Below are positions 2,930 to 5,180 of a stretch of 5,180 nt of DNA, piece by piece; positions within the stretch are counted from its first letter, which is position 1, and every line of letters starts with the position of its first letter. The position numbers were made by a program, and so were the translations under genes. This DNA comes from Candidatus Bathyarchaeum sp. (GTDB lineage Archaea > Thermoproteota > Bathyarchaeia > Bathyarchaeales > Bathyarchaeaceae): NCBI GenBank assembly GCA_003096235.1, contig PIXT01000048.1:1-5180 (forward strand), written 5' to 3'. The notes below the pieces were generated by a model. That model saw only the letters and a list, made by a program, of their open reading frames with translations. It searched no databases and was not told the origin of the DNA.

Positions 2930-4114
2930 ATGAACACCTGTGAAGAACCTGAGACTTCACGTCGTAACATTTTCGCTCTAGGATTCGTCAGTTTCTTTAC
3001 GGACATGTCAAGCGAGATGGTTTTCAGCCTTTTACCTGCGTTTTTGTTAGGATTGCCCGGTTCAAGCACCGCAATGCTGGGATTTATTGAAGGCTTTGCT
3101 GAAGCGTTGAGTTATGCTTTACGTGCAGTTTCTGGAATTTTTTCTGATAAATTCCGCAAACGCAAACCCTTTGTCTTAGCTGGTTATGCCCTGTCAAATG
3201 CTGTTAAGCCCTTTTTTGCTGTCGCAAGAGTGCCTTTTGACGTCTTTGTGATACGTGTCTCTGATAGAGTTGGCAAAGCAATCCGAACTTCTCCTCGTGA
3301 CGCTTTGGTCTGTGAATCTGTTTCAGAAAAACGCAGAGGCGCAGCCTTTGGTTTGCATAGAACTATGGACCAAGCAGGAGCCATAGTCGGACCTGTGATT
3401 GCTTCAGCAGTTATGGTCATGTTGAGTTTCACCATCCGAGACGTTTTCTACCTGTCGTTGATTCCTGGCGGCATCGCTTTGCTGATAATTTTGTTCTTTG
3501 TAAAAGAGCGAACCGCACAATCTTCTGGAGATTTTCAGTTTTTAGAAGGAGTAAAGTCTGTGTTGAAAGGCAACTTTGCCAAATTGCTTATTATTGTCGG
3601 CCTTTTCTCCCTTGGTGCCTTCAACTTTTCTTTTGTTCTCCTTAACGCCCAAGAAGCTGGAATTGCAGACTCCTTTATTCCTCTGGTTTATGCGGCAGTT
3701 AACGTTGCTCATACTGCTGTTGCGATTCCTGCAGGTGTCCTGTCTGATAAAGTGGGTAAGGAGAAGGTCATGGTTTTTGGTTACGCAGTTTTTCTCGTCA
3801 CTGCGTTACTGTTTATGTTTCCTACAACTGGGTACCTTGCCGTGGTGATAGCTTTGCTTTATGGCGCATATCTTGGAATTGTAGAGACCGTCCAGCGGGC
3901 GTTAATTCCAAGTTTTGTAAGCCAAAAACTTAGAGGCACGGCTTATGGGTTGTACTATCTTGCAGTTGGTTCAGCTTTCTTTGTTTCTAATGCGGCAGTT
4001 GGACTGCTGTGGGGATCTTTTGGTTCGGCTTTTGCGTCAGTTTACAGCGTGGCATTGTCTACTATAGCAATATTGGCTATGGTTTTGTTTGTTAGAAGCA
4101 AAAAATTACAGTAA
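2930..4114 (+). CDS. Major facilitator superfamily (MFS) transporter, 12 TM
   Basis: The 394-residue protein is hydrophobic throughout and has the two-fold MFS architecture. The motif A loop between helices 2 and 3 is seen as SGIFSDKFRKRK (68-79), and again in the second half as AGVLSDKVGKEK (268-279). The N-terminal SFFTDMSSEMVFSLLPAFL (21-39), then FIEGFAEA (52-59) and DRVGKAIRTSPRDAL (112-126), followed by RGAAFGLHRTMDQAGAIVGP (136-155), are hallmarks of a widespread archaeal and bacterial MFS branch with no settled substrate. A hydrophilic central loop (about 192-215) separates the halves. It should act in the cytoplasmic membrane as a proton-coupled or uniport carrier, probably for export. 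ATG 2930 is supported by GAGGT (2917-2921), 8 bases upstream. The last 9 bases overlap the 3' end of convergent arsR. A role in metalloid export is conceivable from location but not shown. Confidence 0.9.
   Translation: MNTCEEPETSRRNIFALGFVSFFTDMSSEMVFSLLPAFLLGLPGSSTAMLGFIEGFAEALSYALRAVSGIFSDKFRKRKPFVLAGYALSNAVKPFFAVARVPFDVFVIRVSDRVGKAIRTSPRDALVCESVSEKRRGAAFGLHRTMDQAGAIVGPVIASAVMVMLSFTIRDVFYLSLIPGGIALLIILFFVKERTAQSSGDFQFLEGVKSVLKGNFAKLLIIVGLFSLGAFNFSFVLLNAQEAGIADSFIPLVYAAVNVAHTAVAIPAGVLSDKVGKEKVMVFGYAVFLVTALLFMFPTTGYLAVVIALLYGAYLGIVETVQRALIPSFVSQKLRGTAYGLYYLAVGSAFFVSNAAVGLLWGSFGSAFASVYSVALSTIAILAMVLFVRSKKLQ
4100..4105 (-). terminator. Oligo-T terminator of arsR
   Basis: On the minus strand T6 follows the arsR stop codon (4106-4108) immediately. 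It lies within the final lysine codons of the convergent MFS gene. No stable hairpin is needed for archaeal termination. Confidence 0.45.
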
Positions 4115-4486
4115 CTTCAGCCTGATCAGGTATTCTACTTTCTTGTTTTCGGCAAGGGAGCAGTAGACCCATTTTCCTTTCTTTGTGCGTTTGATTATGC
4201 CCGCGTTTTCCAGTATTTGGATGTGGTGAGAAAGGTTTGGCTGGGTCATGTCTAGGCATATCATGAGTTCGCATACGCACATTTCTTTTTCTGTTAGGAG
4301 TTTGATTATTCGTACTCGTTTTTCGTCGGACAAGGCTTTGAAGAATTTGCTTTGTTTCTTTGCTGTTTTGAGGTCTGCGACTTGTTCTGTTAGTTGTAGT
4401 AGTTCTTTTCTGTATTCTTCTGGGACTTCTGCTTTGCAAAGGTCGGTTTCGGTTAGTCGTTTTAGTCTTTGGTTGACGTTTTTCAT
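4106..4486 (-). CDS. arsR: ArsR/SmtB-family metalloid-responsive repressor
   Basis: The 126-residue product has a winged helix-turn-helix at about residues 46-112: KFFKALSDEKRVRIIKLL (47-64), the metal-site helix EMCVCELMICL (68-78), the recognition helix TQPNLSHHIQILE (81-93), and the wing GIIKRTKKGKWVYCSL (96-111). The CVC pair (C70, C72) matches the CVCxLC As(III) site of classical ArsR. The third cysteine is replaced by Met75, with Cys77 two residues on; C17 and C109 are other thiols. A 45-residue N-terminal extension that looks helical precedes the domain. ArsR dimers repress ars promoters and dissociate on binding As(III) or Sb(III). ATG 4486 has AGGAGA upstream with a 7-base spacer from GGAG. 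The gene is divergent from the microprotein-ACR3 operon and its promoter carries the same AACGTAT half-site, so repression of both itself and that operon is inferred. The 3' end overlaps the MFS gene by 9 bp. Confidence 0.9.
   Translation of the reverse strand: MKNVNQRLKRLTETDLCKAEVPEEYRKELLQLTEQVADLKTAKKQSKFFKALSDEKRVRIIKLLTEKEMCVCELMICLDMTQPNLSHHIQILENAGIIKRTKKGKWVYCSLAENKKVEYLIRLKLL
4134..4149 (+). terminator. Possible T-rich terminator of the MFS gene
   Basis: A pyrimidine-rich stretch CTACTTTCTTGTTTTC lies 20-35 bases after the MFS stop, inside the arsR coding region. It follows a short perfect palindrome CCTGATCAGG (4121-4130), which could at best make a 3-bp stem. Weak evidence. Confidence 0.25.
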
Positions 4487-4508: not shown

Positions 4509-4538
4509 GTTAACGTATCTAAATATGTTTATATAAAC
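4509..4538 (-). promoter_or_regulatory. arsR promoter with palindromic TATA and AACGTAT half-site
   Basis: The perfect 12-bp palindrome GTTTATATAAAC (4527-4538) contains a strong TATA box. Leftward, a start is predicted near 4506, giving a leader of about 20 bases that includes the ribosome binding site. AACGTAT (4512-4518) sits between TATA and the start site and repeats the arms of the inverted repeat at 4541-4574. Because the TATA is palindromic it could in principle direct transcription either way. Confidence 0.5.
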
Positions 4539-4540
4539 AA

Positions 4541-4574
4541 AACGTATAAATATATCTAAAATTATTTATACGTT
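4541..4574 (+). promoter_or_regulatory. Inverted-repeat operator over the TATA box of the arsenic operon
   Basis: AACGTATAAATA (4541-4552) and its exact reverse complement TATTTATACGTT (4563-4574) are separated by 10 bases. The left arm contains the TATA element TATAAATA (4545-4552), and the right arm ends about where transcription should start (near 4573-4577), some 33 bases before the microprotein ATG. A repressor dimer bound here would block TBP/TFB and RNA polymerase. ArsR is the obvious candidate since its gene is divergent and adjacent; the binding itself is inferred. Confidence 0.65.
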
Positions 4575-4607
4575 CTTGGTTAACACCAAAAGGAAGTGAC
4601 AAAAACC

Positions 4608-4709
4608 ATGAGTAAAGACCTAAAATGCCCATACGGAATTCCAGACAACCAATGTTGCCAATCACCTACATGCGCAACATGGATAACCAGACAAAAACAA
4701 ACCAAATAA
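4608..4709 (+). CDS. Cysteine-rich 33-residue microprotein, first gene of arsenic operon
   Basis: ATG 4608 opens a 33-codon frame ending at TAA 4707-4709. The ribosome binding site GGAAGTGA (4592-4599) closely matches the archaeal consensus GGAGGTGA with an 8-base spacer, and a promoter with operator lies just upstream, so this is very likely a real gene. The peptide has four cysteines, C7, C16, C17 and C22, in the pattern KCPYGIPD (6-13) and QCCQSPTCATW (15-25), then a basic tail with R28, K30 and K33. It has no signal peptide or membrane segment, so it should be cytoplasmic. I do not recognise the family. The C-C-x4-C spacing equals that of C12, C13 and C18, which form the As(III) site of the ArsD metallochaperone. 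An As(III)-binding chaperone or buffer for ACR3 is therefore a reasonable inference. A small zinc-binding peptide using all four cysteines is the main alternative. ACR3 begins 22 bases after the stop. Confidence 0.8.
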   Translation: MSKDLKCPYGIPDNQCCQSPTCATWITRQKQTK

Positions 4710-4731: not shown

Positions 4732-5180
4732 GTGGTAGAAAAAGCTACAACTCATCTAAGCGCTTTCGAAAAGTACCTCGCTTTATGGGTTTTTCTTTGC
4801 ATGGTAGCAGGACTGTTTTTGTCCCAAGTTTTCCCACAACTGAGCCTAGCCATTAACAGCCTACAGTTTGCAGGAATATCCATTCCCATAGGCGTTTGCC
4901 TGTTTCTGATGATGTACCCTGCACTATTGAACCTGCAACTAAGCGAACTAAAAAAACTAGCAAAAAACCCAAAACCAATTCTCATAACAATCGTTTCGAA
5001 CTGGATTTGGGCACCATTAGTTTCCGCCTTTCTAGCTTACTACTTCTTGGCAGGAAACGACCAGCTAATTGTTTCCTTGATTCTGCTGGGCTCAAGTCCA
5101 TGCACTGCCATGGTTCTAGTTTGGGGAGCACTTGCAAAGGGTAACCAAGAACAAAACGTAGTAAACACGACCCTGAACAC
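4732..5180 (+). CDS. acr3: ACR3-type arsenite efflux permease, N-terminal part (runs off the window)
   Basis: The frame is open from GTG 4732 to the window edge, giving 149 residues of a family usually around 350-400 long, so the C-terminal part is missing only because the window ends. Features of the ACR3 branch of the bile/arsenite/riboflavin transporter superfamily are clear: FEKYLALWVFLCMVAGLFLS (12-31), then the helix ISIPIGVCLFLMMYPALLNL (49-68), NWIWAPL (90-96), and LLGSSPCTAMVLVWGALAKG (118-137). Cys124 in this last segment corresponds to the conserved cysteine needed for transport in studied ACR3 proteins. The visible part holds about four membrane helices (15-33, 50-68, 82-105, 111-132). 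It should export As(III) across the cytoplasmic membrane, driven by the membrane potential or proton gradient. GTG is supported by GAGG (4721-4724) with a 7-base spacer. It is co-transcribed with the microprotein, most likely under ArsR control. Confidence 0.93.
   Translation, partial: MVEKATTHLSAFEKYLALWVFLCMVAGLFLSQVFPQLSLAINSLQFAGISIPIGVCLFLMMYPALLNLQLSELKKLAKNPKPILITIVSNWIWAPLVSAFLAYYFLAGNDQLIVSLILLGSSPCTAMVLVWGALAKGNQEQNVVNTTLN

What the first reader, a model, noticed from the sequence alone, without database searches (positions are those of the whole stretch)
4608..4709. Undescribed microprotein with an ArsD-like CC-x4-C site at the head of an ACR3 operon
A 33-codon gene with a near-consensus ribosome binding site lies between the ArsR operator and acr3. 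Seen in sequence: cysteines at 7, 16, 17 and 22, with the pair plus third cysteine spaced C-C-x4-C. Established: ArsD binds As(III) through C12, C13 and C18, the same spacing, and passes it to ArsA. Inference: this peptide could be a stripped-down As(III) chaperone or buffer that delivers to ACR3 rather than to ArsA, or a modulator of ArsR. It is short enough to be missed by standard gene callers, so the family may be unannotated.
Basis: partly seen in the sequence, partly recalled or inferred. Interest (0 to 1): 0.78.

Follow-up and report, generated by a model that had tools for sequence, protein, structure and literature searches.

The report
Cysteine microprotein heading archaeal stress operons
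A 33-residue cysteine peptide encoded just before an arsenic pump gene belongs to a real, conserved, apparently undescribed archaeal protein family, but most of its located relatives sit in thiol and redox operons, not arsenic operons.

Summary
ORF 4608-4709 encodes a 33-residue peptide, with an 8/9 Shine-Dalgarno match, between a divergent ArsR gene and acr3. It is a real gene: a 70%-identical copy sits at the same place in Ca. Bathyarchaeum (pN/pS 0.27). The family has 32 rows (30 different), found here only in Bathyarchaeia genomes and in database proteins without an informative name.

The conserved site is not ArsD's CC-x4-C (7 of 32 rows). It is C7, C16 and C22, invariant in 32 of 32, plus C17, H17 or H18 in 32 of 32, as expected of a four-ligand metal site, probably zinc. 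Of 13 located copies, 3 head acr3 operons and 1 is divergent from an arsR-acr3 pair. Eight lie divergently beside a TrmB-type regulator resembling the redox regulator OxsR and precede thioredoxin or Cys-membrane-protein genes; 1 lies among ferredoxin genes. In 12 of 13 the neighbour is a cysteine-bearing HTH regulator.

Best reading: a metal-binding accessory microprotein of thiol-stress operons, recruited to arsenite efflux in one branch. Whether it buffers metal or tunes the regulator is untested.

The parts
4608..4709 (+). Microprotein gene, 33 aa, pattern C-P-x7-C-[C/H, or D-H]-x-C plus a basic C-terminal stretch
   Evidence: homologues; purifying selection
4591..4599 (+). Shine-Dalgarno-like AGGAAGTGA, 8/9 match, 8 nt from ATG. 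Best matches before the other 12 copies range from 5/9 (chance level) to 8/9
4512..4560 (.). Block conserved in the three acr3-type loci; putative ArsR operator and promoter region
   Evidence: alignment of window, L001, L119
4541..4574 (.). Inverted repeat AACGTATAAATA/TATTTATACGTT, 12/12, 10-nt spacer
4106..4486 (-). Divergent ArsR/SmtB-family regulator with a CVC motif; best solved relatives Lmo1102 (9t6r) and a cadmium efflux accessory protein (1u2w; CadC by recall)
4732..5180 (+). acr3 arsenite efflux transporter, 5' part; GTG start 22 nt after the microprotein stop
2930..4114 (+). MFS transporter; the order MFS - arsR - microprotein - acr3 recurs in L119, where arsM follows

Best explanation
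Shown: the ORF belongs to a real family of microproteins (33-44 aa cores) found here only in Bathyarchaeia. In 12 of 13 located copies the gene is divergent from a cysteine-bearing HTH regulator (ArsR type or TrmB type) and is followed by a gene tied to thiol, redox or metalloid stress (acr3, thioredoxin, a Cys-rich membrane protein, or DUF5714 of unknown function); in the 13th it lies among ferredoxin genes. Inferred: the peptide wraps one soft metal ion, most likely Zn(II), with C7, C16, C22 and a fourth C or H at 17 or 18, and ends in a short basic helix. Inferred, less sure: it is induced when the regulator's thiols are hit (arsenite, oxidant, soft metal) and acts in feedback, giving up or taking up metal so as to buffer the stressor or tune the adjacent regulator. 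In the window's branch the module serves an ArsR-controlled arsenite-efflux operon.
For: Homologue in place in L001, and purifying selection. Twelve copies in 11 of 256 Bathyarchaeia genomes at E 3.1e-17 or better, then a gap to one hit with a stop at E 0.003. The protein search settled on 20 proteins, all E 2e-13 or better. C7/C16/C22 plus C17, H17 or H18 in 32 of 32 rows; Cys/His exchange at one position is what metal ligands do (established knowledge, recalled). Regulator beside the gene in 12 of 13 copies: 8 TrmB type and 4 ArsR type (window, L001, L119, L120), all with cysteines. The TrmB regulator's best PDB match is 3r0a, the template on which OxsR's redox Cys24 was modelled (PMC9426492, section 11); its Cys20, kept in 8 of 8, aligns with the matching cysteine. 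The 22-base operator pattern, drawn from these copies, has exact matches in 7 genomes only before the microprotein (7 of 8 copies; G103's has 2 mismatches).
Against: No metal binding was measured. AlphaFold2 gives only a C-terminal helix (23-32) at mean pLDDT 63.6. No match in PDB by profile and none above cut-off in Pfam. Three of 11 TrmB-regulator places have no detected microprotein; one (G102) keeps an operator-like site, thioredoxin and the membrane gene without it, so the operon can do without it. In G094 a second regulator has a one-mismatch operator but no microprotein. L117 has no adjacent regulator (an ArsR-like gene lies about 2.2 kb away). The family is rare: 11 of 256 genomes. Fe-S or As(III) binding through the three invariant cysteines is not excluded.
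Confidence: 0.5

Rival explanations
1. Stripped-down As(III) chaperone or buffer delivering to ACR3, by analogy with ArsD.
For: Heads acr3 in window, L001 and L119; divergent from arsR-acr3 in L120. Three cysteines invariant in all rows could bind As(III). The three acr3-operon copies each keep four cysteines.
Against: CC-x4-C in only 7 of 32 rows; of the 6 of these with known context, 4 are outside acr3 operons. 9 of 13 located copies not beside acr3; 102 of 105 acr3 places without it. Of 80 acr3 loci, one (L001) has it by profile search (a few of these loci are cut close to acr3). No ArsD-like domain.
Confidence: 0.15
2. Redox-active or Fe-S-linked peptide working directly with the thioredoxin, ferredoxin and Cys-membrane protein of the operon as a thiol or electron shuttle.
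For: The next gene is thioredoxin in 5 of 13 copies, the Cys-membrane protein in 3 and a ferredoxin-like gene in 1; peroxiredoxin (L122), OsmC, flavodoxin and NifX-like (L116), DsbD-like (L124) genes nearby. C, H and D also serve as Fe-S ligands (recalled).
Against: No CxxC motif in any of 32 rows. Does not explain the acr3 operons: no thioredoxin was seen in the window or in the L119 stretch listed. Cys/His exchange argues for metal rather than disulfide.
Confidence: 0.15
3. Leader peptide or uORF whose translation, not its product, controls the operon.
For: Short, close to the next gene, before varied downstream genes.
Against: Amino-acid-level constraint (pN/pS below 1 in 33 of 33 pairs compared). 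No consistent RNA fold: z 0.01 in the window, -2.0 in L001, -1.0 in L090 (the L001 value is mildly in favour).
Confidence: 0.05
4. Chance ORF.
For: 33 codons is short, and the protein collection searched does not list the window's copy.
Against: Homologue in place, substitution pattern, 12 further copies, conserved cysteines.
Confidence: 0.01

Closest known systems
ArsD arsenic metallochaperone
   Same: Small cysteine protein of ars operons; the window copy has the C-C-x4-C spacing of ArsD Cys12-Cys13-Cys18 (PMC4562236, passages).
   Different: 33 aa against about 120 (recalled); no ArsD domain hit; CC-x4-C in 7 of 32 rows; no arsA recognised by eye in the L119 stretch listed; most located relatives not in ars operons.
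Brz and the CPxCG zinc-finger micro-proteins of haloarchaea
   Same: Very small archaeal Cys/His protein encoded directly upstream of, and in the same direction as, a gene it regulates (Brz and bop; PMC2253796, abstract and section 7).
   Different: No CPxCG-like pattern in any of 32 rows and no two Cys/His patterns at least 7 apart, as that paper defines them.
OxsR-type TrmB thiol regulators
   Same: Not the microprotein but its neighbour in 8 copies: TrmB domain (PF01978 in both scanned), cysteine near the N-terminus, best PDB match 3r0a (PMC9426492, abstract and section 11).
   Different: Redox sensing untested here; OxsR binds many genomic regions (abstract), whereas here the operator pattern has exact matches at one place per regulator-microprotein pair.

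Membership tests
ArsD | Conserved Cys12-Cys13-Cys18 (CC-x4-C) As(III) site | tested here: not met
   Present in the window and 6 other rows, absent in 25 of 32
ArsD | ArsD domain | tested here: not met
   No Pfam match for the window peptide up to E 0.1, no NCBIfam match up to E 1; 33 aa
ArsD | As(III) binding and transfer to ArsA | not testable with these tools
   Needs biochemistry; no arsA recognised by eye in the L119 stretch listed
CPxCG zinc-finger micro-proteins (Brz family) | At least one CPxCG, CPxCx or CxxCG pattern | tested here: not met
   0 of 32 rows
CPxCG zinc-finger micro-proteins (Brz family) | Two Cys/His patterns 7-40 residues apart | tested here: not met
   0 of 32 rows (tested by start positions at least 7 apart)
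Four-ligand metal-binding microprotein (general kind) | Four conserved Cys/His positions | tested here: met
   C7, C16, C22 plus C17, H17 or H18 in 32 of 32 rows
Four-ligand metal-binding microprotein (general kind) | Compact fold around a metal | tested here: inconclusive
   AlphaFold2 mean pLDDT 63.6, helix 23-32 only
Four-ligand metal-binding microprotein (general kind) | Metal binding | not testable with these tools
   Needs biochemistry

The most novel reading that the evidence does not exclude
The peptide is a portable metal-carrying co-sensor: a microprotein that binds the soft metal or metalloid (or loses its zinc to it) and acts on the adjacent cysteine regulator, so that one module has been wired to two kinds of HTH regulator and to arsenic, thioredoxin and membrane-thiol operons.
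Probability: 0.15. Interest if true: 0.75.

Novelty: new variant of a known kind. Interest (0 to 1): 0.5.

Why it matters
It adds an apparently undescribed microprotein family to archaeal stress operons: in the protein collection searched its 20 relatives are nameless or 'hypothetical protein', and neither the window's nor L001's copy was among the hits. The family ties arsenite efflux and thiol-redox control in Bathyarchaeia to one shared peptide, and its invariant ligand set makes metal binding directly testable.

Tried and rejected
ArsD membership and CPxCG zinc-finger membership: rejected, see the membership test. RNA attenuator: no consistent fold signal. Relatives outside Bathyarchaeia: of 398 genomes drawn from the phylum 5 hit, all of them also hit in the class search; of 148 Asgard genomes 3 gave weak partial matches, E 0.014 or worse, judged chance; in viral contigs 18 stretches matched a pattern and none was confirmed. 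Other archaeal phyla were not searched as genomes, because no handle for them was at hand; there only the protein searches speak, which need shared 5-residue words. PDB by profile: 0 matches. Pfam for 26 rows: 4 families, best Tachystatin_A at E 0.0068 (2 rows), under its cut-off and judged chance. The AlphaFold2 model was too weak to search with, so no fold search was made. Dropped before all counts: the weak hits (L082-L089; L082, L100-L112, L114, L115), L127, and the hit in G018 with an internal stop. My first screen of the 80 acr3 loci asked for two cysteines at most 3 apart and would have missed CDH forms; it was repeated with a profile, same result, L001 alone. Notebook entries 2 ('always' beside a regulator) and 4 ('TrmB/Trx clade') overstate; the report's wording replaces them. 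Literature: searches listed 3, 8, 10, 12 and 12 papers (of 3, 59, 33, 12 and 303 that matched); no title or abstract start shown mentions this peptide.

Full report
What is there. ORF 4608-4709 encodes 33 residues with cysteines at 7, 16, 17 and 22. AGGAAGTGA at 4591-4599 matches the Shine-Dalgarno consensus AGGAGGTGA (recalled) in 8 of 9 positions at 8-nt spacing. The ORF lies between a divergent ArsR-family gene (4486-4106) and acr3 (from 4732). The window is bathyarchaeal by its acr3: the three closest matches are Bathyarchaeota MAGs, one of them Ca. Bathyarchaeum bin115, each 83% identical over the part matched. No whole genome is held for the window.

Is it a gene. Of 80 acr3 loci fetched, one, L001, has the ORF (cysteine screen of the 700 bases before acr3; repeated by profile over all frames of the 80 loci; a few loci are cut close to acr3). 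In L001, 23 of 33 residues are identical and all four cysteines are kept. Base differences fall 6, 4 and 14 on codon positions 1, 2 and 3; pS 0.59, pN 0.16; in all 33 listed pairs of copies (those with pN below 0.35) pN/pS is below 1, at most 0.71.

How wide is the family. A profile search of the 256 Bathyarchaeia genomes searched finds 12 copies in 11 genomes at E 3.1e-17 or better; one further hit at E 0.003 carries a stop and was dropped. Of 398 genomes drawn from the phylum 5 hit, all in that list. Of 148 Asgard genomes 3 gave weak partial matches. In 5.8 billion predicted proteins the family search gave 14, then 19, in all 20 proteins at E 2e-13 or better; the names shown are 'hypothetical protein', one of them from a Bathyarchaeia MAG, and the others have none. 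The window's and L001's proteins are not among them.

What is conserved. In 32 rows (30 different) M1, C7, P8, P12, C16 and C22 are invariant. Position 17 or 18 always supplies C or H: C-D-H in 23 rows, C-C in 7, C-H in 2. So the ArsD-like CC-x4-C (7 of 32) is one form of a four-ligand set in which Cys and His replace each other. The stretch after the last cysteine is basic (net +2 to +4 in the 13 located copies), and AlphaFold2 gives it a helix, at low confidence (mean pLDDT 63.6).

Where the copies lie. Thirteen copies have DNA context: the window, L001 and L116-L126 (9-12 kb each; L127 was a weak partial hit and is not counted). In 12 of 13 a regulator gene lies divergently next to the microprotein. 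ArsR type: window, L001, L119 and L120, with C-V-C or C-I-C in each. TrmB type: L116, L118, L121-L126 (Pfam TrmB shown for the two scanned, L121 and L123). The exception is L117: the gene lies between ferredoxin-like genes, with an ArsR-like gene, read by eye, about 2.2 kb away. The next gene downstream is acr3 in 3 (window, L001, L119; arsM follows in L119); thioredoxin in 5 (L116, L122, L123, L125, L126; Pfam for L123 and L125, the others by their shared motif); a Cys-rich membrane-like protein in 3 (L118, L121, L124; two kin scanned, no Pfam or NCBIfam match); DUF5714 in L120 and a ferredoxin-like protein in L117. Nearby lie OsmC, flavodoxin and NifX-like genes (L116 scanned; look-alikes by eye in L118, L123 or L126), a peroxiredoxin (L122) and a DsbD-like gene (L124).

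Arsenic link. Of 105 matched acr3 places, some of them fragments, in 94 of 256 genomes, 3 have the microprotein next to them: G001 and G059 directly upstream, G136 divergently with arsR between. The G136 acr3 is 45% identical to the G059 one, another acr3 branch, and the peptide tree sets the three acr3-operon copies apart (support 99/97) from the L091-L094 pair, G140 and G136 (96/90). I infer two separate associations with arsR-acr3. Most other forks are unresolved, 35 columns being few, and the TrmB-type copies do not form one supported clade. The arsenic link is real but is a minority context.

The regulator. The TrmB-type regulator was found at 11 places in 9 of 256 genomes at E 1e-20; 8 are beside the microprotein, and these are all 8 TrmB-type copies. 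Three places have none: G094:C17, G102:C194, G032:C15. G102 keeps a degenerate operator-like site, thioredoxin and the membrane gene without the microprotein; the script did not resolve G032. Cysteines 14 and 20 are kept in 8 of 8 regulators, Cys60 in 7. The 22-base operator pattern, which I drew from these same copies, has exact matches in the seven genomes only before the microprotein (7 of 8 copies; G103 has 2 mismatches) and a one-mismatch match before the second regulator of G094. With up to 3 mismatches there are 75 matches in 8 genomes against 58 for the reversed control, so weaker matches carry no weight. The best solved relative is 3r0a, which the OxsR paper names as template, stating that OxsR C24 aligns with C17 of that protein (PMC9426492, section 11); Cys20 aligns with a cysteine of 3r0a that I take to be C17, allowing for tag residues. 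The window's ArsR is closest to Lmo1102 and a cadmium efflux accessory protein among solved structures, with the CVC motif aligned.

Mechanism. Shown: real gene, conserved ligand set, usual position next to cysteine-bearing regulators, purifying selection. Inferred: zinc-like metal binding, because Cys and His replace each other at one position; induction with the operon; feedback on the stress or on the regulator. The data do not decide between buffer, chaperone and co-sensor.

What is known. ArsD's three N-terminal cysteines are described as essential for its chaperone function (PMC4562236, passages). Brz is a small archaeal zinc-finger protein encoded directly upstream of bop; its deletion lowers bop mRNA strongly (PMC2253796, abstract and section 7), a precedent for a regulatory microprotein before the gene it controls. 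Of 14 haloarchaeal C(P)XCG proteins tested, 9 bound zinc, and the authors say that AlphaFold2 cannot correctly predict the tetrahedral arrangement of the cysteines (PMC11241148, abstract), so neither motif nor model here proves zinc. In some searches no listed title or abstract start mentions this peptide; the lists were capped.

Verdict. A real and apparently undescribed microprotein family; the ArsD-like spacing is one form among several; the arsenic role is a minority context. Interest 0.5.

Noticed in passing
L116:5031-5507 (-), L123:4905-5396 (-); kin in L118, L121, L122, L124, L125, L126: Small membrane-like proteins with CNSCYYCKSCTKG or CLRPCYNCIKCTHGMGR motifs in or near the TrmB-type microprotein operons; the two scanned have no Pfam (E 0.01) or NCBIfam (E 1e-5) match.
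   Followed up: partly
L183 (G094:C17): A second TrmB-type regulator whose divergent neighbour looks, by eye, like an ABC ATPase of the SufC kind, with a one-mismatch copy of the operator and no microprotein.
   Followed up: partly
L180 (G102:C194): Same regulator, degenerate operator-like site, thioredoxin and Cys-membrane gene but no microprotein ORF: a natural operon without it.
   Followed up: partly
P0008, P0009, P0011, P0012, P0019: Database versions begin with an extension (MVLF-I-NT--YI) that looks like the translated operator, so the annotated starts are probably too early.
   Followed up: no
L007:4570-5000: A frame before acr3 that looks like a low-molecular-weight arsenate reductase and has an in-frame stop; seen by eye only.
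   Followed up: no
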